The translations under genes and the position numbers were made by a program. This document shows positions 17,001 to 50,152 of a stretch of DNA of 64,000 nt, piece by piece. The stretch is taken from positions 1 through 64,000 of the forward strand of contig PCBK01000110.1 of assembly GCA_002731275.1 (NCBI GenBank), given 5' to 3'. The first letter of the stretch is position 1. Each line of letters opens with the position of its first letter. Source of the DNA: Deltaproteobacteria bacterium. Its GTDB lineage: Bacteria; Myxococcota_C; UBA6777. The notes beneath the pieces are model-generated. The model did no database searches, was not told the DNA's origin, and saw nothing but the letters and a program-made list of their open reading frames with translations.

Positions 17001-17293
17001 GATAGACCTCCCTGGAGCATGAGAATGTGCAGGCATCTTCAATGACCCAACGTTCTCACAATATCATTGAACAAAAAACTTCAATATCATTACCGGGATG
17101 CGCTGACAAGGGTGTTCATGTTCAAAAAAACATGAGACCCAACGACACAAAGCGAGTCCAAAGAAGTGCGCAGGACGCGCATAACACGGGGCTCACAGCT
17201 GACGAGCAGAGAGATCTAAAAGTGAGCGAAACAGACGCCCCTTCAGGCTCGTCAAATGACCATGACGACACACACATGCAACAGGAGATGATC

Positions 17294-18664
17294 ATGAATT
17301 CCCCACGTATGGCCTCACTGCTCATACCACTCGTATGTATCAGCTTACTTAGCACACACTGTCAATGTTCTCCAGGAGTCACGAACTCCACAGAGGAAAC
17401 AACAAGTCAGTCAGAAATGTCAAAAGAGGCCTCACAAGAAGCACCCAAAGAGCAAGTGAGTCTCCCAGAGGAATCCAACTCCACAACAGAACAGATCACG
17501 GAGACTCAAGAGCCACCGATCGAAGCAGAACAAGATGCAGCGCCACCAGAGACTGGAAACGAGCCTATTAAAGAACAAGTCACCCAAGACACAGCACCTC
17601 CCCAGCGTAAAGTCATCCGAGGTCGGTTTGAGTCTGGTTCACCAGTCCGCCAATGTGGTGATCTGGTCACATGGAATGCTCCCGACGGTCTGTTACTGCG
17701 CGCTCCTATGAATTTGTGTGGTGATGACATCGCAGCCCTTGCGGCGACTATCAAGAAGAACCTCGACGCGATCGAGGCCAAAGGCGGACGCGCGCTTGTC
17801 ATGTTGATCCAGGGCATCAATCTCCCACCATCGTGGCTCACTCGTTGTAAGACATGGAAACTTCAAGATGGTCGTTTCTCTGGAGACATCTGTTTACCTT
17901 GGGACACGAATTATCAAAAAGATCTCAAAACAGCGCTCACAACCCATCTCGCTCCTGTGATCAATGGACATAAAGCTGTCGCAGGGGTGTACTTTACGAT
18001 CACCACAATGACCAATGGCGCGGAGCTGCACTTTCGAGCAGATCGCTCAACGTTCCCATACCCTGGCGATAAGATCTTCCATCAATCGTATTTTGATATC
18101 ATGAAGCTCTACCAGGACACCTTTGACGCGCCTATCCTCTTCGAAGCAGGACACTGCCTCTGGTCACGTACACAGGTTGACTGTGATCTTCCTCTCGCGT
18201 TGTATCGATACAGTCGCGACACTTTTGGACACAACAACACTGGCATCGCGCTGTGGAACTGTGCCGAGCGTTTTTGGGCAGGGACAGGCGCAGGCACCGA
18301 AACATTTGGCGTCAAAAAGCTCATCGAAGAGGCCAGCAAAGATGGGGTCTCTATCGGCTGCCAGACAGTTGGTAACTTCACAGCGCAGCCCTGCCGCTTC
18401 TCCGATCCGGATGTTGGCAATTACGGCGCTTCAGTCCAAGGAACACCGAGTCAATGCCAAACAGATGATCCCAATTTTAACCCAGCACAGGCCTGTATCG
18501 ACACGATGAAATGGTTCGCAGGCAAGCAAAGCCAGGCTCAGCAAACAGTCAACGTCAAAGGTACATGGTTGGAAAACTGGACAAAAGAGTACAGCAAGGC
18601 TGGCGTGTACAATACGAGTAACGCGTGTAAACAAGAGATCGATGCCTTCGCGTACACTCCTTGA
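17294..18664 (+). CDS. Exported protein of unknown function, possible TIM-barrel hydrolase
   Basis: A 456-residue secreted protein, probably a lipoprotein, with a signal segment ending THCQC near residues 23-25. Residues about 26-105 are a Glu/Thr/Gln-rich linker like that of the neighbouring esterase. The rest has alternating strands and helices with carbohydrate-enzyme flavour: MLIQGINLPPSW, GVYFTITTMTNGAELHF, DAPILFEAGHCLW and NNTGIALWNCAERFW. This could be a glycoside-hydrolase-like TIM barrel with Glu/Asp catalytic residues, but I recognise no family and the call is weak. Several Cys could form disulfides. The start at 17294 has AGGAG six bases upstream; the frame stays open for 89 codons further upstream. 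Confidence 0.6.
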   Translation: MNSPRMASLLIPLVCISLLSTHCQCSPGVTNSTEETTSQSEMSKEASQEAPKEQVSLPEESNSTTEQITETQEPPIEAEQDAAPPETGNEPIKEQVTQDTAPPQRKVIRGRFESGSPVRQCGDLVTWNAPDGLLLRAPMNLCGDDIAALAATIKKNLDAIEAKGGRALVMLIQGINLPPSWLTRCKTWKLQDGRFSGDICLPWDTNYQKDLKTALTTHLAPVINGHKAVAGVYFTITTMTNGAELHFRADRSTFPYPGDKIFHQSYFDIMKLYQDTFDAPILFEAGHCLWSRTQVDCDLPLALYRYSRDTFGHNNTGIALWNCAERFWAGTGAGTETFGVKKLIEEASKDGVSIGCQTVGNFTAQPCRFSDPDVGNYGASVQGTPSQCQTDDPNFNPAQACIDTMKWFAGKQSQAQQTVNVKGTWLENWTKEYSKAGVYNTSNACKQEIDAFAYTP

Positions 18665-18685
18665 CCCCTCCTTCCAAATCATTTT

Positions 18686-19060
18686 TGAAAAAATTGTGAA
18701 CCTCTTTTGAGGTCATTGCGTATGACTATGCAAAGACGAGAGAAGTAAGTCTCAAAAGACTCTCCTTCACCGCCTAATGATGGTGGTCATAGATATAATC
18801 AGCTCAATGAAGTTACAGTCGAGCGAAGACTGTGTACTTGAGCGGGTGTTTCAGCCTCATTCGATACTCGCAATTCCGAGCCACTGGCAGAAACATCTTC
18901 GGGTGCTGAGCCGAAAGCAGCTATACTCAACCATTATTATATTTGTGACTGCCGCCCTTCTATACTCGTAGACAGTCAACAAACACTGACTACGTTCCAT
19001 ATACAATCAAATTTTTTGGTACAAAAACACCCCTTCATTGCCTGAAGGGGTGTTTTTGTA
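18686..19060 (+). ncRNA. Candidate structured RNA upstream of the Ro60-like gene
   Basis: A 375-base stretch without a supportable gene that ends in a strong intrinsic terminator 18 bases before the Ro60-like gene. Successive stems can be read: ACCTC-TTTT-GAGGT near 18700; TTGCGTA-tgac-TATGCAA (18716-18733); GAGA, a seven-base bulge, then GTCT-CAAA-AGAC and TCTC (18738-18764); CCGCC/GGTGG near 18775; ACAGTC-gagcgaa-GACTGT (18815-18833); and CGGGTGT/ATACTCG near 18843-18870. Bacterial Ro proteins are often encoded beside the Y RNA they bind, so a Y-RNA-like transcript is the leading idea. I could not identify a convincing tRNA-like T-arm or a promoter. It could instead be a 5' leader with attenuator. 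This is inference. Confidence 0.3.
19020..19060 (+). terminator. Strong intrinsic (bidirectional) terminator
   Basis: An 18-bp perfect stem (19020-19037 with 19043-19060) with loop TTGCC. The stem is GC-rich in the middle (CACCCC/GGGGTG) and flanked by A- and T-rich arms, so it could terminate on either strand. The upstream coding gene ends about 355 bases before it, which is why I suspect a separate RNA ends here. Confidence 0.85.
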
Positions 19061-19078
19061 TGAGACGGTGGTATCATC

Positions 19079-20920
19079 ATGGACGTCAAACAACTCTTCC
19101 TCCGAGAAGCCAAACTGATCGAGCACTATCGTGCACAGACGGATCAATATGCCGAATACACAGGGATGTTGCTCTTGCTTTTACAACAAGGTGTCTCGTT
19201 GAGTCATGCCACCAAAGCTCGTGTCCTCGCAGCATGTTGGGCACGTCGTGATTTTGAGATCGCCAGCTACTTATTGGACCATGAAACATGGTCTCTTCCA
19301 GAGGTCGTCAAGGCGCTCAAATATCTCGACGCAGGACGACAGATCAGAGCGCTCCAAAAACGCATCACACGTCTGACGGCACAAGGATCTGCCAAACCTT
19401 CGACAATTGGACAGCTTCGTTCGACGATTCAGGATTTACAAAAAGAAGAGCAGCTCGGAAGCCTCTCCGGTGCGCTCGCCAAAAGACTCAAGCGTTGGAT
19501 CAATCGTATTCCCAAGGAAAAGCTCTCTTTCTACGCCCTGAGTATGCCACCAGAGCCCTGGCGAGAATTAGCCGACTTGATTCACTTGCGCGCAGATGAT
19601 TTTCAGCTCGATTGGTTCCTTCCCGTCGTCTTCGGTCAAGATCCACCAGCTGAGAGCATGGCCGCAGCCTGCCTCAACGCGACACAAAGCGATCTGCCAG
19701 AGCTGATCAACAAGTGGCACGCTCCCTATTCTTTTATTCGTCGGTCCTTTACAACACCTATCCGCGAAGCTCTACGAGGGAGAATCGCCCAATACGAAAC
19801 ACTCGATACCCTGCTTTGGTACTACGAAGAGTTAGCATGCTATGAAGTGGATAAACACATCCATGACCGACTGACGTCTGGCGAAGCTCCAACGTTTGGA
19901 TACGGAATGCTCGTCGAGCGGTTGCTTTTGTTTGAAAAGATGGGAGCATCTTTTTACAAAGCGCTCGTCCCCATCGCGGAGCGCAGACTGAAAGAGATCA
20001 AGCTCCCACTTGAATCACCTGTTGTTGTGCTCGGTGATGCGTCATCGAGTATGAATGTCGCGATCCGCGTCTCGACCATTATCGGTTCGATGCTCGCGAC
20101 CTTAACAGGGGCTAAGATCCGCTTCTTCAATCACGAGTTGATGTCATGGGACAGAAAGAACTCCTTTCAACCAACCAGTCTTCACGACCTGATGGGGATT
20201 GTGAAGCAGGTCAAAGCCTCTGGGATGACATCACCTGCTGCAAGTTTATGGCCATCTCTTCGTAATAGAGAGCTTGTCAAACACTTTGTCATCGTGACAG
20301 ATGAAGAAGAAAACAAGGTCGCACCGGCCAAACACAAAAAGGACAGGTTGTACTTTGCGCCTATGCTCAAACGCTATCGTGAAGAGGTCTATCCTGCCAA
20401 GGTGACGTTTATTTCGTTCTTACAAGATCCACAAAAACCAGGGCATATGACACCACAGCTCAAAGAGAAAAGTATCCCCTTCTTGCAATTTACAATGAAT
20501 GGTCTGCGCCCAGACCTCAAAAAACTCGACGCACTGCTCGGATTGTTGGCCTCTGAGAGTACCTTCTTCCAAGAACATGCGTTGTTGCTGGCTGACGAAA
20601 TCCATACACATGGTCTTCCTCATGTACTCGAACAAATCGATGAAAAGACCAAGCGAGATGAAAAGGATATCCTGCTCGCACAGCTACATGCGCTCCGCGA
20701 TCTGGCGTATGCCCAAACACAAGACAAGCAAGCGCTCATCCAAATCATCGGAAAATTGAGACATCTCTCTCAGCTCCTCCAACTCGATGAAGTCCACCAA
20801 ACAATGACGAAGCTGCTCGCGTTGATGATGGAACAAGACGAATCCACTGGACTTCCCAAACGTGTCTTCAGGAGACTGATCGAAGACATCGAACACACAG
20901 AGTTCCTCATTCAAATGTAG
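19079..20920 (+). CDS. Ro60/TROVE-like vWA-domain protein (putative RNA-binding)
   Basis: A 613-residue cytoplasmic protein. The first about 310 residues are helical, HEAT-like, as in the TROVE ring of Ro60/Rsr. Residues about 313-480 form a von Willebrand A domain with a full MIDAS: D320-x-S322-x-S324 (LGDASSSM), T384 (SGMTS) and D408 (IVTDEEEN). The spacing and the FFNH, MTSPAASLWP and VTDEE blocks resemble the Ro60 vWA domain (GGTDCALP and VFTDNE). A helical tail of about 110 residues follows. Ro proteins bind Y RNAs and misfolded RNAs. The assignment to TROVE rather than another HEAT-vWA family is not certain. It is followed after seven bases by a kinase gene. Confidence 0.6.
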   Translation: MDVKQLFLREAKLIEHYRAQTDQYAEYTGMLLLLLQQGVSLSHATKARVLAACWARRDFEIASYLLDHETWSLPEVVKALKYLDAGRQIRALQKRITRLTAQGSAKPSTIGQLRSTIQDLQKEEQLGSLSGALAKRLKRWINRIPKEKLSFYALSMPPEPWRELADLIHLRADDFQLDWFLPVVFGQDPPAESMAAACLNATQSDLPELINKWHAPYSFIRRSFTTPIREALRGRIAQYETLDTLLWYYEELACYEVDKHIHDRLTSGEAPTFGYGMLVERLLLFEKMGASFYKALVPIAERRLKEIKLPLESPVVVLGDASSSMNVAIRVSTIIGSMLATLTGAKIRFFNHELMSWDRKNSFQPTSLHDLMGIVKQVKASGMTSPAASLWPSLRNRELVKHFVIVTDEEENKVAPAKHKKDRLYFAPMLKRYREEVYPAKVTFISFLQDPQKPGHMTPQLKEKSIPFLQFTMNGLRPDLKKLDALLGLLASESTFFQEHALLLADEIHTHGLPHVLEQIDEKTKRDEKDILLAQLHALRDLAYAQTQDKQALIQIIGKLRHLSQLLQLDEVHQTMTKLLALMMEQDESTGLPKRVFRRLIEDIEHTEFLIQM

Positions 20921-20927
20921 GATAGTG

Positions 20928-22469
20928 ATGTACCACAAACCACCTTCCCCTCTCCCTCTCGGACATGTCATTCGAGAACGCTATGAAGTCAAAGCGCTCC
21001 TTGGTCAAGGCGGAATGGGCTCAGTCTATCACGTCTACGATCGACTCAGACGACGAGATGTCGCGCTCAAAAAACTTCATCCTCACTTGGGAGAAGACAC
21101 CTCAACACAGCTTCTTCGAGAACTCTCTCTACAAGAACGCGTCCCCCACATCGGCATCACAAGAACATACGATGCAGATATCGACCCGGAGACAGGGGGA
21201 CTCTTTTTCACGATGGCGTTGATCAAAGGCCCATCTCTCGAAGACCTTCTCCAATGTCTATACCAGCACAATCAACACCCAGCTCTGGATATGGAAAGAC
21301 TGCAAAGGTTGATGACATCCTTGCTAGACATCTTCAAAGCCATCCACTCACAAGGAATTATCCACGGGGACATCAAGCCTTCACACATTCTTTTTGCCCC
21401 AAAGGAACCAAAGAACCCAGCCCCCTTACAAATGCCGACAACCACAACACAATGTCTAGCTTGGATGGATGAACAACCCAAGCTCATCGACTTTGGTCTT
21501 GCACGTCCCGTTGCCATCTCGCTTTTCCCAACAGGCGGAGCAGGAACACCCCCCAGTATGGCACCAGAACAATGGCAGTCGAAGACCGCGCTCACTGCCG
21601 CAACAGACATCTATGCGTTAGGACTGATCTTGTACAGACTCGTTACAGGCGCACCACATATAGGGGGACAATTACCCACTCCCTCCGCTTGGTTACAGAC
21701 ACATGGCCATACGACATTCCCGCAACCACAGCAGGAAAAAATCGATACGCTCATAACACAGTGCCTTGCGTACCGTACAGAAGATCGATTTCAAGACGCA
21801 TCAGCTCTGCAACAAGCGCTACAAAAGACGATCACTCCGCGGACATACGAAGAGACTCCCATCTCGTCCCCCAAACACGATGAAGCATCACACAGCGCTC
21901 CGCTTAGAGCTGTCGAACCACAAAACCGTTCGATCGAATGGTCTGACCCCCCCATCAGTATACAAGAACTGGAAGCCCTCTCAAAAGCTCCACAACTACG
22001 TCACCTGAGCATATGCCGTACAGCGCTCCAAGATCATCATCTCGTGTATCTATCGTCTCTAACAATGTTGGAGACGTTGCGACTGGCTGGAAATCAACTG
22101 ACAGGGAAAGGGCTACAGTATCTACAGGGTCTCACAAAATTGAGGATGCTCTCTCTGGCAGACAACCCACTCCAAACTGACACGCTTGCGTCCATTCAGC
22201 GTATACAGAGTTTGAAGTGGTTGTCACTGCGAGGTTGTTCGGTCAACACAGACATCTTCTTGTACATACAATCTCTGCCATCACTGACAACCCTTCATCT
22301 ATCAGAGAACCCCATCGGGAACGAAGCGATTGCGTGGCTTGCTCAAATGAAGTCATTACGCGAATTGTCCCTTCATCATACACACATCACCAAGGAAGGC
22401 ATCACTCAACTCGAATCCTCGCATCCCTCCTGTACGATATCTTACTCATCCGTCAACAAATTCTCGTAA
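20928..22469 (+). CDS. Hanks-type Ser/Thr protein kinase with C-terminal leucine-rich repeats
   Basis: A 513-residue cytoplasmic kinase. The glycine loop is GQGGMGSVY (26-34), the ATP lysine is K48 in VALKK, the catalytic loop is HGDIKPSH (146-153), DFG is at 188-190 and MAPE at 211-214. HGD replaces HRD, and the metal-binding Asn that normally follows KPx is His153. After a linker (about 300-345), about six 24-residue leucine-rich repeats fill 350-505, of the LxxLxLxxNxL type. There is no membrane helix. The start at 20928 or the GTG at 20925 lies just after the Ro60-like gene, so the two are coupled and the kinase may act on, or with, that RNP (inference). The 3' end overlaps the convergent metallopeptidase-like gene by 28 bases. 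Confidence 0.85.
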   Translation: MYHKPPSPLPLGHVIRERYEVKALLGQGGMGSVYHVYDRLRRRDVALKKLHPHLGEDTSTQLLRELSLQERVPHIGITRTYDADIDPETGGLFFTMALIKGPSLEDLLQCLYQHNQHPALDMERLQRLMTSLLDIFKAIHSQGIIHGDIKPSHILFAPKEPKNPAPLQMPTTTTQCLAWMDEQPKLIDFGLARPVAISLFPTGGAGTPPSMAPEQWQSKTALTAATDIYALGLILYRLVTGAPHIGGQLPTPSAWLQTHGHTTFPQPQQEKIDTLITQCLAYRTEDRFQDASALQQALQKTITPRTYEETPISSPKHDEASHSAPLRAVEPQNRSIEWSDPPISIQELEALSKAPQLRHLSICRTALQDHHLVYLSSLTMLETLRLAGNQLTGKGLQYLQGLTKLRMLSLADNPLQTDTLASIQRIQSLKWLSLRGCSVNTDIFLYIQSLPSLTTLHLSENPIGNEAIAWLAQMKSLRELSLHHTHITKEGITQLESSHPSCTISYSSVNKFS

Positions 22470-23266: not shown

Positions 23267-26200
23267 ATGTTTCCGCCTTTACAACCTCATCGAATCCTCC
23301 AGTTCTTGCTCCTTTGTGGTGTTTTTCTGACAGGATGTCCAGACGATCCAACGACATTCAAAAATGTTTGCCAATCCTGTGAAGACCGCTGTCTCAAACT
23401 CAGCGAGACCGAATACAAGTGCGTCGCCTGTCTCACGGACCAACAATGCCAAACCCCCTCCAGTCCCGACAAAAAGTGCAATGAACAGTTCGAATGTGTC
23501 TGTGGCTCCGACAAAGACTGCTCTGACGGACAAAAGTGTGACCAAACCACAGGACAATGCACCGGATGCACCGACGACAAAGACTGCACAAACGCCAGCG
23601 CTCCCATCTGTTCTGCCGGTGTATGTGTCGCTTGCAAAGCCTCAGACAAACGCGACTGTGTCATCACAGATCCCACCTTCTGCGCAAAAGGTGCACAAGC
23701 ATGCGGCGCTGACGGACAGTGGAAAAATTGCCAGATCGTCAGCAAGAAATCCTGTCAAGCGAGTGAGTTCTGTCGAGAGGGCGAATGTCTCTGTCGCACC
23801 GAGCTTACACGATGTGGACAGCTCTGTCTGAACACGCGAAATGACCCAAACCACTGTGGAAAATGTGACAACAAATGTCCCGACAAAACCTTCTGTGCGG
23901 CTGGAAACTGTGTCAGCGAGTGCCCAGCTGATACGCCTGTCCAGTGTGGACGCTCGTGTGTGAATATCTCCAGGGATCTCTTTCACTGTGGTAGTTGCGG
24001 AAACACGTGTAAAGATGGCAAAGAGTGTCGTGGAGGTTTCTGCGTCTGTCCAGAGGGACAAATCGAGTGCAACAACCAATGTATCGATCCAGCGCACAAC
24101 ACAACACATTGTGGACAATGTGGACGGACTTGCCCATCTGGTCAGCAATGTATAAGCGGTGCGTGCCTGTCCAGGTGCCCCAAAAGTTCACCAACCCAAT
24201 GTTATGGTGGATGCTTTGATACAAAAAGAAGCCGTCAACATTGCGGAAAGTGTGGACAAGCCTGTCGAGTCGACCAAGCCTGTCAAACCGGACAATGTAA
24301 GTGTCCCGAAGGTAGACAAGAGTGTAATGGTGCATGTGTCGATGTCACCACACACTATAGCCACTGTGGAAAATGTGGACAGGCCTGCAAAAAAGGCGAA
24401 CTTTGCGCCAACGGCCAATGTGTCAAAAGCTGCCCTTCGAGGACACCGAAGGCGTGCTATGGAGGATGCTTCGAGACACTCTCAAACACACAACACTGTG
24501 GAGAATGTGGAAACACATGTCTTTCAGGAGAGTTATGTGACAGTGGACAGTGTGTATGTCCTGATAACAAAGACCGTTGTGGAAATCGCTGCGTCCAGCT
24601 CAATGAAAATCGTTTGCATTGTGGACTTTGTAACCAATCGTGCAAAGAAAATGAGATCTGCGCCCAAGGACAGTGTGTATTATATTGCCCAAAACCAACA
24701 ACGCTTTGTGATGGTGGATGTATTGACACAAAAACCAACGTCAATCACTGTGGAGCATGTGGTCAAGTTTGCCCCTCCACACAGGTCTGCCAAAACGGAA
24801 CATGTGTCTGCAACACCACCAAAGAACTCTGCGAAGGACAATGTGTCTCCCTTGACACCTCTAACGAACACTGTGGAAGCTGTGGCAATGCCTGCGCTGA
24901 AATCGAAGGTTGCACCTCTGGGGTATGTGTCTACCAAGGTTGCCTGGCCGGAAAGACCGAGTGCGGTAAAGACTGCGCAGACATACAATCCGATAATCGA
25001 CACTGTGGAGGATGCAATAACGCCTGCCCTCAAAACGAGATCTGCAATGCTGGAGTATGCATCAAAGCCCTCTGTCAGGATGGACAGACACGGAGCTGTT
25101 ACGAGGCATTCGCCTCCACGAAGAACAAGGGAGTATGCACATCAGGGACACAAGTGTGTGCTCTTGGTCGGTGGGGAGCATGTATTGGCCAGGTCATCCC
25201 ACAACCTGAAGCTTGCAACCAAAAAGATGATGATTGCGACGGTGTTGTCGACGAAGACTGTGACCAACATGGAACCTGGACGCTCACAACCTTCGCAGGA
25301 CTTCGAAGCAATTATCAGGACGGACCTGCACGTCAGGCCCGATTCAATAGACCTTCAGATGTCGTACAGACCTCTTCTGGTGATATCTACATCACAGACA
25401 CAAAAAACCACCGAATCCGCAAAATAGACACAAACAACAACGTGACAACTTTCGCGGGCAGTGGTGTCGCTGGGTTTCAAGATGGAAAAGGTACAAGCGC
25501 ACAATTTAATACTCCCAACGGTATCACCATAGACGCGGCCGGAAATCTGTACGTCGCGGATACTGAAAACAACCGTATCCGTAAGATAGATCCTTCCGGA
25601 AATGTCACCACAATCGCAGGCAGTACTTCAGGATTTGTCGATGGACGAGGAACAAACGCAACATTCTTCAGACCCCGCAACCTCGCAGTTGACACCAACA
25701 ACAACATCTACGTTTCAGACACACAGAATCACGCCATTCGCAAAATAGACACCTCCGGAAATGTCACAACGATCGCAGGCAACGGAAGCATAGGGTTCAC
25801 AAATGGCAAGGGAGCAACAGCCTCTTTCAACACACCACAAGGCATTGTCGTCAACGCGAGCGGTGGAATCTACGTCGCAGATACCCGAAATCATGCGATC
25901 CGTTATATCGATCCACAGGGAGTAACGTCGACTTACAGTGGTACAGGAATGTCTGGGTTCAAAAATGGTGGACGTCAACAAGCCATCTGGAATAACGTCA
26001 CTGACCTCTCTATCGACTCGTCAGGGAACCTATTCGCCGCCGATAGCAGAAACCAATGTGTACGCAAAATCGACGCATCAGGTGTCGTCACAACCTTCTC
26101 TGGAAGCCGCAACAAAGGATACAAAGACAGTGGCAAGGACAAGGCTGAGTTCCGCGTACCTGTTGGTATCCACGTCAAAAAGGATGGCGGGGTACTGGTC

Positions 26201-28159
26201 GCAGATACACTCAACCATCTCATTCGGTTAGTCGCAAAGGACGGAAGTGTCACGACCACAGCAGGATATCTACAAGGCGTACAAAATGGCCAGGCTGAAC
26301 AAGTGCTTTTTCACGAACCTACCGGGCTGACTTTCGACAAAAATGATCACCTGATCGTCACAGATAGAAGAAATGACCTCATACGCAAAGTCACTCCAGA
26401 TGGGACCACCACGACCCTTATCAATGTAGGAACACCCAATCAGGCAGATGATCCTGTAGGAGTTGTCGTCGATACACTCGGAAATATTTACTTCACCACT
26501 CTGTTTACCAACCAAATCCACAGGCTCGACTTGGCAGGTCTGCTTACAACATTTGCAGGCTCAACACAAGCAACCAACGGCAAAACAGACGCTCAAGGAA
26601 CACAGGCTCGGTTTTTTCACCCTGCAGGAATGGGTATTCACACTGACAACCAAATCTACGTCGCGGACAAAAACAACCACTGTATCCGCAAAATAGATCC
26701 CCAAGGTAATGTCACAACCATCGCAGGTAGCACAAAGGGTTTTCAGGATGGTCAAGGTACAAGCGCAAAATTCAACAACCCTATAGGCGTCACCTTAGAC
26801 ACTCTTGGACATATTTACATTGCAGACACGGAAAACCACAACATCCGCCAAATTGATCCACAAGGCAACGTCATCACTTTCGCTGGCAGCACAAAAGGCT
26901 ACAAAGATGCCAAGGGCGCAAACGCACAATTTAGTTTTCCGTACGCGCTTCACCTTTCGCAACAATATCTCTTTGTCGCCGACACAAACAACCATGTCAT
27001 CCGTCAAATTGACATCAACGGTCATGTCAAGACGATCGCAGGTGTCAACACCGCAGGCTTCCTCGATGGACCTGCCACAAAGGCCATGCTCGACTCACCT
27101 GTCGGTATCACCTCCGACAAACAAGGTCGTCTCTACATCTCAGAGGCCGGTAACCACCGCATACGAAGGCTTACACAATTTACATTCCCACACGTCACAA
27201 CCTTTGTAGGGAACCGCACAAAAGGAAACAAAGACGGCAGAGGTGAAACAGCTTCATTCCACAACACAAACGATATCATCTCAGCTCCTGATGGTGGGTA
27301 CTATGTCTCGGATACCAAAAACCATCTCATCCGAAAAATCAGCGCATTCGGTCAAGTGATCACGTTTGCAGGAGACGGCACGTCGGGCTTCAAAGACGGT
27401 AAAGGTGTGGCCGCTCAATTCGACAACCCAAAAGGCCTTGCCCTCGACAGCACAGGACAGCTTTACGTCGCGGATGCACATAATCATCGCATCCGAAAAA
27501 TCGACCCACAAGGCAACGTCACAACCTTCGCCGGTGATGGCACAAAGGGCACACAAGATGGACAGGCATTATCCACACAATTCGACACACCACGGGGGCT
27601 TGCCTTTGACAGTGTAGGCAATTTGTATGTCACGGACTCCCAAAACCATCGCGTCCGAAAAATCGACACACAGGGTAACGTCACGACTTTCGCTGGAAGT
27701 GGCCAGGGCTTCAAGGATGGACAGGGTACACAGGCCCAGTTTGACCGACCTTGGGGAATTGTTCTCGATGACAAAGGAAATGTGTACATCGCTGACATGT
27801 CAAACCATCGCATCCGAAAAATCGACCCACAAGGCAACGTCACAACCTTGGCAGGCTCAGGCGCAGCAGGGTTCAAAGATGACAAAGGCTCACAAGCTCA
27901 ATTGAACAGCCCACAAGATCTCGCGATGGATGCTTCTGGCAACCTGTACGTCACGGACACAGAGAACCACGCGATACGTAAAATCGACGCACAGGGAAAC
28001 GTCACAACGATCGCAGGTATAGGCTCTCCAGGACATAGAGACGGCCTGCTTTCGAGCGCAATGTTTGATACCCCCTCTGGACTCTTGCTCCAACAAAAGA
28101 CACTCTTCGTCACACAGAGGGGAGAATCACAATACATCCGTCGCATCAGTCTCCCCTGA
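23267..28159 (+). CDS. Giant lipoprotein: ten Cys-rich CGxCG modules, MopE motif, 18 NHL-type repeats
   Basis: A 1630-residue surface lipoprotein with lipobox LTGC (Cys24) followed by PDD. An N-terminal Cys block (about 30-190) precedes ten modules that each close with an HCGxCxxxC motif (about 195-590) and resemble Stig1-type repeats of myxobacterial proteins. One Asp-rich DDDCDGVVDEDC motif (MopE/PF11617-like metal binding) comes next. The last about 950 residues hold 18 units of about 53 residues reading roughly 'NxVTTxAGxxxxGFxDG...AxFxxPxGI...GxLYVADTxNHxIRKID', an NHL/beta-propeller pattern; 18 would make three six-bladed propellers. Unit 8 is degenerate. Surface binding or adhesion is likely (inference). 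GAGGAG precedes the start. Its first about 250 codons are nearly identical to the paralogue at 28271. Confidence 0.85.
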   Translation: MFPPLQPHRILQFLLLCGVFLTGCPDDPTTFKNVCQSCEDRCLKLSETEYKCVACLTDQQCQTPSSPDKKCNEQFECVCGSDKDCSDGQKCDQTTGQCTGCTDDKDCTNASAPICSAGVCVACKASDKRDCVITDPTFCAKGAQACGADGQWKNCQIVSKKSCQASEFCREGECLCRTELTRCGQLCLNTRNDPNHCGKCDNKCPDKTFCAAGNCVSECPADTPVQCGRSCVNISRDLFHCGSCGNTCKDGKECRGGFCVCPEGQIECNNQCIDPAHNTTHCGQCGRTCPSGQQCISGACLSRCPKSSPTQCYGGCFDTKRSRQHCGKCGQACRVDQACQTGQCKCPEGRQECNGACVDVTTHYSHCGKCGQACKKGELCANGQCVKSCPSRTPKACYGGCFETLSNTQHCGECGNTCLSGELCDSGQCVCPDNKDRCGNRCVQLNENRLHCGLCNQSCKENEICAQGQCVLYCPKPTTLCDGGCIDTKTNVNHCGACGQVCPSTQVCQNGTCVCNTTKELCEGQCVSLDTSNEHCGSCGNACAEIEGCTSGVCVYQGCLAGKTECGKDCADIQSDNRHCGGCNNACPQNEICNAGVCIKALCQDGQTRSCYEAFASTKNKGVCTSGTQVCALGRWGACIGQVIPQPEACNQKDDDCDGVVDEDCDQHGTWTLTTFAGLRSNYQDGPARQARFNRPSDVVQTSSGDIYITDTKNHRIRKIDTNNNVTTFAGSGVAGFQDGKGTSAQFNTPNGITIDAAGNLYVADTENNRIRKIDPSGNVTTIAGSTSGFVDGRGTNATFFRPRNLAVDTNNNIYVSDTQNHAIRKIDTSGNVTTIAGNGSIGFTNGKGATASFNTPQGIVVNASGGIYVADTRNHAIRYIDPQGVTSTYSGTGMSGFKNGGRQQAIWNNVTDLSIDSSGNLFAADSRNQCVRKIDASGVVTTFSGSRNKGYKDSGKDKAEFRVPVGIHVKKDGGVLVADTLNHLIRLVAKDGSVTTTAGYLQGVQNGQAEQVLFHEPTGLTFDKNDHLIVTDRRNDLIRKVTPDGTTTTLINVGTPNQADDPVGVVVDTLGNIYFTTLFTNQIHRLDLAGLLTTFAGSTQATNGKTDAQGTQARFFHPAGMGIHTDNQIYVADKNNHCIRKIDPQGNVTTIAGSTKGFQDGQGTSAKFNNPIGVTLDTLGHIYIADTENHNIRQIDPQGNVITFAGSTKGYKDAKGANAQFSFPYALHLSQQYLFVADTNNHVIRQIDINGHVKTIAGVNTAGFLDGPATKAMLDSPVGITSDKQGRLYISEAGNHRIRRLTQFTFPHVTTFVGNRTKGNKDGRGETASFHNTNDIISAPDGGYYVSDTKNHLIRKISAFGQVITFAGDGTSGFKDGKGVAAQFDNPKGLALDSTGQLYVADAHNHRIRKIDPQGNVTTFAGDGTKGTQDGQALSTQFDTPRGLAFDSVGNLYVTDSQNHRVRKIDTQGNVTTFAGSGQGFKDGQGTQAQFDRPWGIVLDDKGNVYIADMSNHRIRKIDPQGNVTTLAGSGAAGFKDDKGSQAQLNSPQDLAMDASGNLYVTDTENHAIRKIDAQGNVTTIAGIGSPGHRDGLLSSAMFDTPSGLLLQQKTLFVTQRGESQYIRRISLP

Positions 28160-28270: not shown

Positions 28271-31200
28271 ATGAGCACGCAAAGCTCCCCACACAGTGTA
28301 TACTATCTCAAACTTCTTCTGGCCTTATGCGGCCTTCTCTTGACAGGGTGTCCAGACGATCCAACGACTTATAAAAATGTCTGCCAATCCTGTGAAGACC
28401 GCTGTCTCAAACTCAGCGAGACCGAGTACAAGTGCGTCACCTGTCTCACGGACCAGCAATGCCAAACCCCCTCCAGTCCCGATAAAAAGTGTAATGCACA
28501 GTTCGAATGTGTCTGTGGCTCCGACAAAGACTGCTCTGACGGACAAAAGTGTGACCAAACCACTGGACAATGCACCGGATGTACCGACGACAAAGACTGC
28601 ACAAACGCCAGCGCCCCCATCTGTTCCTCCGGTGTATGTGTCGCTTGCAAAACCTCAGACAAACGCGATTGTGTCATCACAGATCCCACCTTCTGCGCAA
28701 AAGGTGCACAAACATGCGGCGCTGACGGACAGTGGAAAAATTGTCAGATCGTCAGCAAGAAATCCTGTCAAGCGAGTGAGTTCTGTCGAGAAGGAGAATG
28801 TCTCTGTCGTACCGAGCTTACACGATGCGGACAGCTCTGTCTCAACACGCGAAATGACCCAAATCACTGTGGAAAATGTGACAACAAATGTCCCGACAAG
28901 ACCTTCTGTGCGGCTGGAAGTTGTGTCAGTGAGTGCCCCGCAGAGACGCCAACAGAGTGTGGTCGCTCGTGTGCAAACGTGTCCAGAGACCTCTTTCACT
29001 GTGGTAGCTGCGGCAATACGTGTAAAGATGGCAAGGAATGTCGTGGGGGCACATGTGTCTGTCCTGAAGGACAAATCGAATGTAACAACCAATGTATCGA
29101 CCCTACATATAACACAGCACACTGTGGAAGCTGTGGAAACACTTGCAAATCCGGGCAGGTGTGCGCAGCTGGCGCTTGCCTATCGAGCTGCCCAAAAAAT
29201 ACACCAAAGACCTGCTATGGTGGGTGCTTTGATACACAAAGAAGTCGTCAACATTGCGGACAGTGTGGACAAGCCTGTCGAGTCGACCAAACCTGTCAGG
29301 CCGGACAATGTAAATGCCCCGAAGGTAAACAGGAATGTAACGGCGCGTGCGTCGATGTGACCGTCCATCCAGGACACTGTGGCAAGTGCGCAAATGCATG
29401 TAAAGAGGGTCAACAATGTACCCAAGGAAGCTGCGTGGGCGTTTGTCCTTCGACCACCTCAACGCTCTGTTATGGAGGATGTTTTAGTACAAAGAACAGC
29501 ACACAACACTGCGGGAAGTGCGGAAATACATGCCAAAATCAACAGGTCTGTACAGAGAGCAAGTGCGCTTGTCTGCAAGGGGAATCATTTTGTGGTAACA
29601 AGTGCGTCAACGTCCTCTCAAATCGCCTTCATTGCGGCCAGTGTGACAATCGATGTCCAGCCGGAGAAGTATGCGCAGGTGGCAAATGTACACGCACTTG
29701 TTCGTCCTCAACGCTCCTCTGTGATGGTGGATGTGTCGATGTGAAAAAATCCTTCCAACACTGTGGTGCCTGTGGCAACAGATGCCAGCCAGGAGAGCTT
29801 TGTCAACAAGGTGTATGCTCTTGTAACACAGGGCTGCAACTGTGCGAGGGAGAGTGTGTCGATCTGGCCAATTCCTCCAAACACTGCGGTCGGTGTGGAC
29901 TGACCTGCGCAGAAGTCGAAGCATGCGCCTCGGGCCTATGTGTGTACCAGGGTTGTGCAGACAAAACAGATTGCGACAAACGATGTGTGGATACAAAAAC
30001 CGATGAGAGCAACTGCGGAAAGTGCGGAACAGTATGCAAAAGCGAAGAGTTATGCCTCGAAGGTGTCTGTCGTATCCCCTGTACAAACGGAGACACAAGA
30101 GCTTGCTACACAGGTCCAGCAGCCACCCAGGGTGTCGGAACCTGCCAAGACGGCACACAGAGCTGTGTCAACCAGATCTGGAATACATGTCAAGGCGACA
30201 CGCTGCCACAAACTGAGACGTGCAACAATCTCGACGATGATTGCAACGGACAAATAGACGACAACCTCGCTCGCTCTTGCGGCATCGGCGAATGTAGAGG
30301 CAGTGAGATCTGCAACGCAGGAACGTGGGCCGCTTGCAACGGCAAAAAGCCCGCCAATGAAGTCTGTGATAACAAAGATAACAACTGCGATGGAAAGGTC
30401 GACGAAGGGCTCTCATGTACCCTCTCTTGGTCCGTCAGTACCTTTGCAGGGACGACAGATGGATACGCAGATGGGGACAAACTCCAAGCACAATTTAGTA
30501 GTCCAATCCGCACACTCATCGACACTCAAGGCAACACCTTCATCTCCGACGTTGGAAATCATCGCATACGTATGATTGACGCCAAAGGAGTTGTCACGAC
30601 GTTCGCAGGAACCGGGACAAAAGGTACGGTAAATGGGGGCAAAGCGACCGCACAATTTAGCTCACCAGCCGGGATCGCCTGGGGTCCACAAAGCCAAGGG
30701 ATCTTCATGTTTGTCGCGGACTTTGACGGTGATAAGATCCGCAAAATTGCATACACCAACGGCGCGATCAATGTCACAACACTCGCCGGGAGTGGTGCAG
30801 GTGGATTCAAAGATGGCGCTGCAGGTGTCGCCGAATTTAACGAACCAGCAGGCATCGCCTTTGATGGTATGTCCAATCTTTACGTCGCGGATTCCAAAAA
30901 TCACGCCATTCGCAAAGTGGATCTACAAGGAAACGTCACCACAGTCGTAGGAACAGGTAGCGCAGGGTTCGTCAACGGTAACGGCACAAGCGCGCAGCTC
31001 AACACGCCCTCTGATGTGGCCTTGGATCCGAACGGAAACCTCCTCATCGTCGACGCTCTCAACCATTGTATTCGCATACTTGACGTCAACACAGGCAACG
31101 TCTCGACCTTTGCGGGAACAGGCGCACAAGGCTCATTTGATGGACCCAAAGCCCAGGCTCAATTTTCCGGCCCCTTCGCGATAGCGTTTGATGGACAAGG

Positions 31201-31429
31201 CAACCTGTTTGTTGTCGAAGCTGTTGGACATAGAGTCCGCATGATCGATCCAAAAGGAAACGTGACGACGATCGCAGGGAGTACACAGGGTTTCTCGGAT
31301 GGTAATAACCCTCTCTTCGCGCAATTTGACACCCCCTCAGGTATTCATGTAGATAGCAACGGAGACCTTTATATCGCCGATCAAGCCAACCACAAGATCC
31401 GTCTCGTCAAAAGGACCGTCGCCCCATGA
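28271..31429 (+). CDS. Lipoprotein paralogue: ten Cys-rich modules, two MopE motifs, six NHL-type repeats
   Basis: A 1052-residue lipoprotein (lipobox LTGC, Cys27, then PDD). The layout is that of the preceding gene: N-terminal Cys block, ten HCGxC-type modules (the last reads NCGKC), then Asp-rich metal-binding motifs, here two (NLDDDCNGQIDD and NKDNNCDGKVDE), then only six NHL-type units, enough for one six-bladed propeller. The first about 250 codons are close to identical at DNA level to the upstream gene, while the propeller part has diverged, so duplication with later gene conversion of the 5' part is likely. The stop overlaps the start of the pseudouridine synthase gene (ATGA). It is probably exposed at the cell surface. 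Confidence 0.85.
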   Translation: MSTQSSPHSVYYLKLLLALCGLLLTGCPDDPTTYKNVCQSCEDRCLKLSETEYKCVTCLTDQQCQTPSSPDKKCNAQFECVCGSDKDCSDGQKCDQTTGQCTGCTDDKDCTNASAPICSSGVCVACKTSDKRDCVITDPTFCAKGAQTCGADGQWKNCQIVSKKSCQASEFCREGECLCRTELTRCGQLCLNTRNDPNHCGKCDNKCPDKTFCAAGSCVSECPAETPTECGRSCANVSRDLFHCGSCGNTCKDGKECRGGTCVCPEGQIECNNQCIDPTYNTAHCGSCGNTCKSGQVCAAGACLSSCPKNTPKTCYGGCFDTQRSRQHCGQCGQACRVDQTCQAGQCKCPEGKQECNGACVDVTVHPGHCGKCANACKEGQQCTQGSCVGVCPSTTSTLCYGGCFSTKNSTQHCGKCGNTCQNQQVCTESKCACLQGESFCGNKCVNVLSNRLHCGQCDNRCPAGEVCAGGKCTRTCSSSTLLCDGGCVDVKKSFQHCGACGNRCQPGELCQQGVCSCNTGLQLCEGECVDLANSSKHCGRCGLTCAEVEACASGLCVYQGCADKTDCDKRCVDTKTDESNCGKCGTVCKSEELCLEGVCRIPCTNGDTRACYTGPAATQGVGTCQDGTQSCVNQIWNTCQGDTLPQTETCNNLDDDCNGQIDDNLARSCGIGECRGSEICNAGTWAACNGKKPANEVCDNKDNNCDGKVDEGLSCTLSWSVSTFAGTTDGYADGDKLQAQFSSPIRTLIDTQGNTFISDVGNHRIRMIDAKGVVTTFAGTGTKGTVNGGKATAQFSSPAGIAWGPQSQGIFMFVADFDGDKIRKIAYTNGAINVTTLAGSGAGGFKDGAAGVAEFNEPAGIAFDGMSNLYVADSKNHAIRKVDLQGNVTTVVGTGSAGFVNGNGTSAQLNTPSDVALDPNGNLLIVDALNHCIRILDVNTGNVSTFAGTGAQGSFDGPKAQAQFSGPFAIAFDGQGNLFVVEAVGHRVRMIDPKGNVTTIAGSTQGFSDGNNPLFAQFDTPSGIHVDSNGDLYIADQANHKIRLVKRTVAP

Positions 31430-39839: not shown

Positions 39840-40105
39840 TGATTTTTTTGGGCGATCCCTTATATACGGGCGAGTTTCCACTCGCCCTTACTGCCGCGCT
39901 TCGCTTGCCCTTGCTTTGGGCAAGTTGCCACTTGCCCCTTCTTCTCTTCTGCCGCGCTTCGCTTGCCCCTGCTTTGGGCAAGTTGCCACTTGCCCCTTCT
40001 TCTCTTCTGCCGCGCTTCGCTTGCCCCTTCTAACGGGGATGCACGGGCATCCCCTGGCGCGCTTCGCTTGCCTTCCCCTCCTGATGACGCCTTCGGCGTG
40101 TGGAT
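39840..40105 (+). repeat. Mosaic palindromic repeat array, locus 2
   Basis: The 538-base gap between the HEAT gene and the efflux operon is filled largely by palindromes: GGGCGAGT-ttcc-ACTCGCCC (39868-39887), GGGCAAGT-tgcc-ACTTGCCC (39918-39937 and 39976-39995), GGGGATGC-acgg-GCATCCCC (40035-40054), and ACGCC-ttc-GGCGT (40087-40099). Two 58-base units (starting near 39891 and 39949) are nearly identical. The roughly 75-base right end is shared with the arrays at 47624 and 49862. I see no gene in the gap. Confidence 0.85.
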
Positions 40106-47623: not shown

Positions 47624-47951
47624 TTTTTTGGGCAAGTTGCCACTTGCCCCTTCTTCTGCCGCGCTTTTTTTGGGCAAGTTACCACTTGCCCCTTCTAACG
47701 GGGATGCGCGGGCATCCCCTGGCTCGCTTTTTTGGGCAAGTTTCCACTTGCCCCTTCTAACGGGGATGCGCAGACACCCCCTGGCGCGCTTTTTGGGCAA
47801 GTTGCCACTTGCCCCTTCTTCTGGATCGTTTTTTTGGGCAAGTTTCCACTTGCCCCTTCTAACGGGGATGCACGGGCATCCCCTGGCGCGCTCCGCTTGC
47901 CTTCCCCTCCTGTTGACGCCTTCGGCGTATACTGCCGCACTTCGTTTGCCC
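47624..47951 (+). repeat. Mosaic palindromic repeat array, locus 3
   Basis: Fills most of the gap between the reductase and PHA synthase genes. GGGCAAGT-type palindromes occur at 47630-47649, 47672-47691, 47734-47753, 47795-47814 and 47836-47855, with loop variants tgcc, tacc and ttcc. GGGGATGC-type palindromes sit at 47700-47719 and 47864-47883, plus a broken one near 47762. The array ends with ACGCC-ttc-GGCGT (47916-47928). Units are separated by CCTTCTTCTGCCGCGCTTT-like or CCTTCTAAC linkers, so two unit types alternate. I see no gene here; the open frame through it is a consequence of the repeats. Confidence 0.88.
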
Positions 47952-49861: not shown

Positions 49862-50152
49862 TTTTTTGGGATGTCTTTTTTGGGCCACTTGCCACTTGCC
49901 CTTATATACAGGCGAGTTGCCACTCGCCCCTTCTTCTCTTCTGCCACGCTTTGCTTGCCCCTGCTTTGGGCAAGCTTCCACTTGCCCCTTCTTCTGCCGC
50001 GCTTTTTTGGGCAAGTTGCCACTTGCCCCTTCTTCTGCCGCGCTTTTTTGGGCAAGTTGCCACTTGCCCCTTCTTCTAACGGGGATGCACGGGCATCCCC
50101 TGGCGCGCTTCGCTTGCCTTCCCTTCCTGTTGACGCCTTCGGCGTGGTTGAC
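49862..50152 (+). repeat. Mosaic palindromic repeat array, locus 4
   Basis: Lies between phaC and the Cys-rich lipoprotein gene. It contains GGCGAGT-tgcc-ACTCGCC (49911-49928), GGGCAAGC-ttcc-ACTTGCCC with one mismatch (49968-49987), two perfect GGGCAAGT-type palindromes (50009-50028, 50050-50069), GGGGATGC-acgg-GCATCCCC (50081-50100) and ACGCC-ttc-GGCGT (50133-50145). The left end shares CCCTTATATAC followed by the GGCGAGT palindrome with locus 2. No gene is seen in the rest of the gap up to 50343. Confidence 0.88.

What the first reader, a model, noticed from the sequence alone, without database searches (positions are those of the whole stretch)
18686..22469. Possible Ro60/Y-RNA-like RNP locus coupled to a leucine-rich-repeat kinase
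Seen: a 375-base non-coding stretch full of consecutive stem-loops ends in a strong terminator just before a HEAT-vWA protein whose MIDAS residues (D320, S322, S324, T384, D408) and flanking blocks resemble Ro60. Seven bases later comes a Hanks kinase with leucine-rich repeats. Established: bacterial Ro (Rsr) genes often sit beside their Y RNA gene. Inference: this may be an Ro-type RNA-binding particle with its own kinase, an arrangement I do not know from described Rsr loci.
Basis: partly seen in the sequence, partly recalled or inferred. Interest (0 to 1): 0.78.

Follow-up and report, generated by a model that had tools for sequence, protein, structure and literature searches.

The report
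Divergent bacterial Ro60-like gene with kinase
This bacterial locus encodes a very divergent relative of the RNA-binding protein Ro60, in an apparent operon with a protein kinase and just downstream of a structured RNA that sits where related loci carry their Y RNA but does not look like a Y RNA.

Summary
The 613-aa protein (19079-20920) has all five MIDAS residues at the stated positions. It has no Pfam hit of its own, but it is a divergent member of a TROVE/Ro60-like family: a family HMM finds it at E 2e-17, and its predicted fold matches Ro60/Rsr over residues 8-498 (Z 14.8; unrelated vWA proteins reach 10.6 on the vWA domain alone). A Hanks kinase with leucine-rich repeats starts 4 nt downstream. 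The 18665-19060 stretch is a real structured stretch: its 19-bp helix (5 G-U pairs, + strand only) is the longest non-terminator helix in the 64-kb window and is absent from ten shuffles. It is not a recognisable Y RNA (no Rfam YrlA hit, no tRNA-like arms, no hit to a model of the relatives' Ro-binding stem), and it has no homologue in the collections searched. Still, it lies where relatives carry their Y RNA: structured RNA, terminator, then the Ro-like gene. The paralogue locus in the same genome carries three tandem Y RNA-like RNAs with complete tRNA cloverleafs, next to a different kinase. Verdict: a Ro60-like protein, yes; an upstream structured RNA, yes; a Y RNA, not shown; coupling to the kinase, an inference. 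New variant of a known kind.

The parts
18781..18954 (+). structured RNA domain: 19-bp closing helix 18781-18799/18936-18954 (5 G-U pairs, no mismatch) enclosing a multi-branched loop of hairpins (18802-18843, 18844-18898 and smaller ones)
   Evidence: pair probabilities mostly near 1; longest non-terminator helix in the window; none >= 18 bp in 10 shuffles; minus strand z only -1.7
18665..19018 (+). whole non-coding stretch between the upstream lipoprotein-like gene and the terminator; further hairpins at 18700-18713, 18716-18733 and about 18965-18990
   Evidence: no homologue in own genome, 4 family genomes or phages; one weak 43-nt plasmid match, E 0.4
18836..18845 (+). ACTTGAGCGG, a match to ACTTGNNCRG found upstream of several relatives (3' strand of their Y RNA Ro-binding stem); possibly chance
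   Evidence: about 1% chance in a stretch of this length (inference); not supported by the covariance model
19019..19061 (+). intrinsic terminator, 18-19 bp stem plus U-tract, ending about 18 nt before the Ro-like ATG
19079..20920 (+). divergent Ro60-like protein: alpha-solenoid (about 1-306), vWA with intact MIDAS D320 S322 S324 T384 D408 (about 311-490), helical C-terminal extension (about 495-613)
20925..22469 (+). Hanks-type Ser/Thr kinase (residues 20-297) with C-terminal leucine-rich repeats (about 350-490); same strand, 4-7 nt after the Ro-like stop codon

Best explanation
The locus is a duplicated, fast-evolving Ro60-type module. The 613-aa protein forms a Ro60-like ring: a helical-repeat solenoid closed by a vWA domain with a working-looking metal site. 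As in Ro60/Rsr, it most likely holds structured or damaged RNA. (Shown: homology and predicted fold. Inferred: RNA binding.) The structured RNA upstream, ended by its own terminator, occupies the place where relatives keep their Y RNA genes and is most likely a separate small RNA that partners or regulates this protein, having lost or never had the tRNA-like module. (Inferred from position and structure only.) The kinase is probably co-transcribed with the Ro-like gene, and I infer that it phosphorylates the Ro-like protein or a partner held by its vWA domain, tying RNA handling to a signal sensed through the leucine-rich repeats. My estimates: protein assignment about 0.9, partner-RNA reading about 0.4, kinase acting on the Ro-like protein about 0.4.
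For: Family HMM hit E 2.3e-17, and phmmer finds relatives at E down to 3e-12. hhalign to the family 98.5%; family to TROVE 98.2%, E 3e-14, with the HEAT part alone 89.8%, E 1.8e-6. PDB TROVE entries hit at 3.4e-4. Best fold matches are TROVE 9kop and Ro60 2i91, with VIA Z 14.8 over 417-426 residues against 10.6 or less for vWA-only matches. MIDAS invariant. Exceptional + strand RNA helix. Relatives have Y RNAs upstream on the same strand: YrlA hits in L065, L066 and L026, a partial weak hit in L044, and three Y RNA-like units in the same genome's paralogue locus. Terminator-like hairpins lie between Y RNA and ATG in L052 and L039 (read from sequence). The kinase follows after 4 nt. A SHOCT-kinase gene is conserved beside the paralogous Y RNA locus in two genera.
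Against: The window's HEAT part matches the family only weakly by sequence (6.9% probability, although in the right register and better than shuffles). The fold model is medium confidence (pLDDT 62) and was built with Ro-like relatives in its alignment. The RNA shows no Y RNA signature and has no homologue, so covariation could not be tested. The kinase is one of many similar ones in the genome, and neither gene has an ortholog in the four family genomes. No sigma-70-like promoter was found upstream of the RNA.
Confidence: 0.45

Rival explanations
1. The structured stretch is a cis-acting leader of the Ro-like/kinase mRNA: the terminator 18 nt before the ATG is an attenuator, and upstream hairpins decide between termination and read-through.
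For: Terminator-to-ATG spacing is typical of attenuators. Segment 18887-18899 could pair over 13 positions with the terminator's 3' strand and 18844-18851 over 8 with its 5' strand; in the fold these two segments pair with each other, so the pairings would be mutually exclusive.
Against: Such complementarity arises by chance at the percent level (inference). The antiterminator would be far weaker than the 18-bp terminator. No Rfam leader fits. No homologues to show conserved alternative pairing.
Confidence: 0.25
2. The stretch is the long 3' untranslated region of the upstream lipoprotein-like gene (17027-18664), ended by the terminator; the Ro-like gene has its own promoter near the terminator.
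For: Same strand, and no closer + strand terminator after 18664 was found. Simplest transcript map.
Against: Does not explain the exceptional 19-bp helix with five G-U pairs. 3' UTRs of this length and structure are unusual (general knowledge).
Confidence: 0.25
3. A genuine but degenerate Y RNA: the hairpin 18802-18843 with ACUUGAGCGG is the Ro-binding stem.
For: ACTTGNNCRG motif shared with relatives; an 18-nt near-match of 18878-18895 to the D-arm junction of the L066 YrlA, p about 0.045 over the set tested.
Against: No YrlA hit; the covariance model of the relatives' Ro-stem does not pick it; no T-arm; the 5' side of the internal loop differs.
Confidence: 0.08
4. The protein is an unrelated helical vWA protein whose domain order converged on Ro60.
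For: No direct Pfam hit; helical part only weakly similar by sequence.
Against: vWA belongs to the Ro-like family at 98.6%; conserved F185, P189, P190, P216, E240 in the helical part align with the family; Ro60 is the best full-length fold match.
Confidence: 0.07

Closest known systems
Ro60 / Rsr (TROVE domain plus vWA_Ro60, PF05731 / PF25045)
   Same: Helical-repeat solenoid followed by a vWA domain with intact MIDAS; best full-length fold match; detectable profile homology through intermediates
   Different: Below every Pfam threshold; about 23% identity even to the paralogue in its own genome; extra helical C-terminus; no recognisable Y RNA; kinase in the apparent operon
Paralogue Ro-like protein of the same genome (L045:7936-9858) and its MAG orthologs
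   Same: Same vWA family; structured RNA upstream; Ser/Thr kinase gene nearby
   Different: Those carry an EF-Tu domain III-like C-terminus and tandem Y RNA-like RNAs with a full tRNA cloverleaf; their kinase is of the SHOCT/FGE type, not LRR
YrlA bacterial Y RNA (RF02553)
   Same: Position immediately upstream of a Ro-like gene
   Different: No tRNA-like T-arm, acceptor hairpin or D-arm; a 19-bp closing helix instead; no Rfam match
Hanks-type kinase with leucine-rich repeats
   Same: Pkinase plus LRR domains; G-loop, HGD and DFG motifs present in the sequence
   Different: No ortholog in the four family genomes; directly follows a Ro-like gene

Membership tests
Ro60/Rsr (TROVE) | Direct match to TROVE PF05731 or vWA_Ro60 PF25045 | tested here: not met
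   no family at E 1; no TROVE in the genome
Ro60/Rsr (TROVE) | Homology to TROVE proteins through a profile of intermediates | tested here: met
Ro60/Rsr (TROVE) | HEAT-type solenoid closed by a vWA domain | tested here: met
   predicted model only, medium confidence
Ro60/Rsr (TROVE) | Intact MIDAS (DxSxS, T, D) | tested here: met
   residues 320, 322, 324, 384, 408
Ro60/Rsr (TROVE) | Binds Y RNA or misfolded RNA | not testable with these tools
   needs biochemistry
Bacterial Y RNA (YrlA) | Covariance-model match | tested here: not met
   no YrlA hit even at E 10 in 501 bases
Bacterial Y RNA (YrlA) | tRNA-like module (T-arm, D-arm) | tested here: not met
   (no tRNA); no T-arm sequence seen in 18665-19078
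Bacterial Y RNA (YrlA) | Ro-binding stem with the conserved internal loop of the relatives | tested here: inconclusive
   motif ACTTGNNCRG present but model R1 gives no hit; R1 has low power, missing some of its own training loci
cis-regulatory attenuator | Terminator just before the start codon plus a competing antiterminator | tested here: inconclusive
   terminator met; complementarity at 18887-18899 and 18844-18851, conservation not testable

The most novel reading that the evidence does not exclude
A Ro60-type RNP in which the Y RNA has been replaced by a new, unrelated structured RNA and the particle is controlled by a dedicated leucine-rich-repeat kinase encoded in the same operon.
Probability: 0.2. 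Interest if true: 0.75.

Novelty: new variant of a known kind. Interest (0 to 1): 0.55.

Why it matters
Ro60 particles are RNA quality-control machines found from phages to humans. How they are regulated and which RNAs they accept is still open. A Ro60-like protein in an apparent operon with its own kinase, beside a non-canonical RNA, in a genome that also holds a Ro-like locus with Y RNA-like RNAs carrying complete tRNA cloverleafs, would give two natural variants for testing what the RNA and signalling parts contribute. It also shows that standard domain models miss a whole branch of Ro-like proteins, including members on large viral contigs.

Tried and rejected
(1) Direct Pfam and NCBIfam scans of the window protein: nothing. 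(2) Single-sequence structure prediction: poor, pLDDT 42. (3) Window protein in viral contigs, and window RNA in phages and plasmids: no useful match. (4) MITE or DNA palindrome: rejected because the long helix needs five G-U pairs that exist only in + strand RNA, and there is no second copy in the genome. (5) A 64-aa ORF (18777-18974) across the RNA domain: no start-site signal seen and the length is expected by chance; not pursued. (6) Rfam hits ohsC, MIR1222, rli38 and others at 18985-19061: all rest on the terminator hairpin and lie far below their gathering scores. (7) Covariance model R1 from trimmed Y RNA stems: no hit in the window, but low power. (8) Pattern search for cloverleaf Y RNAs in viral contigs: the ten hits lack the Ro-stem motif. 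(9) First z-score scan timed out and was replaced by a smaller control.

Full report
Observation. The kinase begins 4 nt (GTG) or 7 nt (ATG) after the Ro-like stop codon. Pfam confirms Pkinase and LRR in the second protein and nothing in the first.

What the protein is. Direct searches fail, and TROVE is absent from the whole genome. A protein search finds one paralogue in the same genome and relatives in two family genomes. From these, more members were found: a tandem pair in a third family genome, Planctomycetota, Armatimonadota and Myxococcota MAGs, and eight large viral contigs. The paralogues score against vWA_Ro60 just under its cut-off (E 9e-6 to 5e-5). The family profile matches a set of true TROVE proteins over solenoid plus vWA (hhalign 98.2%, E 3e-14; HEAT part alone 89.8%) and PDB TROVE entries (E 3.4e-4). 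The window protein matches the family at hhalign 98.5% over 290 columns and HMM E 2.3e-17. Split apart, its vWA is clearly of this family (98.6%) while the solenoid alone is weak (6.9%, but in register and better than shuffles). An AlphaFold2 model from a 13-sequence alignment (pLDDT 62) has 9kop TROVE and 2i91 Ro60 as its only Foldseek hits below 0.001. The ten best VIA-align rows are all Ro60, Rsr or TROVE, Z 11.4-14.8 over 372-426 residues, above vWA-only matches at 10.6 or less. So this is a divergent Ro60-like protein with a helical C-terminal extension.

What the RNA is. 18665-19014 folds better than all shuffles (z -4.8), but so do some arbitrary segments of this window. The decisive feature is one helix: 18781-18799 with 18936-18954, 19 consecutive pairs, five of them G-U, equal in length to the terminator and longer than any other helix in 64 kb; ten shuffled copies contain none of 18 or more. 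The G-U pairs mean that the helix exists only as + strand RNA, against a DNA palindrome. The stretch has no copy elsewhere in the genome and no homologue in four family genomes or phages, and only a weak 43-nt plasmid match, so covariation could not be tested.

Is it a Y RNA? Upstream of relatives I found the motif ACTTGNNCRG, which reads like the 3' strand of the Y RNA Ro-binding stem, together with tRNA-like arms. Rfam YrlA matches, below its gathering score but significant, sit beside TROVE/Ro-like genes in L065, L066, L026, L029 and L030, and a partial weak one in L044. In the paralogue locus of the same genome three tandem RNAs fold into a Ro-type stem, an internal loop with AACUUG or AACUC, an inner helix and a complete tRNA cloverleaf. 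Two MAGs have the same kind of RNAs, and the alignment of seven units has 21 of 38 pairs with compensatory changes. The window RNA has none of this except one copy of the motif; it gives no YrlA hit and no hit with a model of the relatives' Ro-stem (low power). What it shares is position: structured RNA, terminator, about 20 nt, Ro-like start codon, as in L052 and L039 (read from sequence).

Kinase. The window kinase has no ortholog in the family genomes and many paralogues in its own, so adjacency alone is weak evidence. In favour of a link, a different kinase gene (SHOCT, Pkinase, FGE-sulfatase domains) is conserved at 42% identity beside the paralogous Y RNA locus in two genera.

Mechanism. 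Shown: homology, predicted fold, intact metal site, gene order, RNA helix. Inferred: that the protein binds RNA, that the upstream RNA is its partner or regulator, and that the kinase phosphorylates the particle. Rivals for the RNA are an attenuator leader (mutually exclusive pairings exist) and a plain 3' UTR.

Literature. Jumbo-phage TROVE proteins are described as RNA-repair platforms with a tRNA-like RNA (PMC7824862). In the open library searched I saw no description of a Ro-like gene in an operon with a Hanks/LRR kinase, nor of Y RNAs with a complete normal-order cloverleaf. Most specialist Ro papers are not in that library, so this is not proof of novelty.

Noticed in passing
L045:9859-10400 (-), same genome; also L040:3280-3600 and L046:4438-4750: Tandem Y RNA-like RNAs whose tRNA-like module is a complete, normal-order tRNA cloverleaf with an invariant acceptor (GUGUACAAAU...UUUGUAA) and varying anticodon arms, set in a Ro-type stem; 21 of 38 pairs show compensatory changes over 7 units. 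ARAGORN calls them tRNA-Lys, -Asp, -Pro, -Asn, -Ile.
   Followed up: partly
L045:7936-9858, L040:7392-9356, L041:7416-9356: The Ro-like proteins of these loci end in an EF-Tu domain III-like domain (PF03143, E 8e-7 in the own-genome copy); relatives without that domain (L044) have YrlA-like permuted tRNA modules instead.
   Followed up: partly
L045:10492-12918 and L046:1635-4280: A SHOCT-Pkinase-FGE-sulfatase protein is conserved (42% identity) beside the Y RNA-like array in two genera.
   Followed up: partly
L044:5800-11430 (G003): Two Ro-like genes flank another vWA gene, followed by an unknown protein and a ThiF/E1-like protein; YrlA-like RNAs precede both Ro-like genes.
   Followed up: no
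L051-L058 (IMG/VR contigs, 52-470 kb) and phage record LR756511.1: Large viral contigs encode members of this Ro-like family, several inside tRNA gene clusters.
   Followed up: partly
window 39891-40044, 47656-47819, 49937-50077: Dispersed arrays of 41-62 bp tandem repeats sharing a core close to GGGCAAGTTGCCACTTGCCCCTTCT.
   Followed up: no
window 23267-28159 and 28271-31429: Two adjacent, very similar large cysteine-rich, NHL-repeat-like lipoproteins, apparently a tandem duplication (read from sequence).
   Followed up: no
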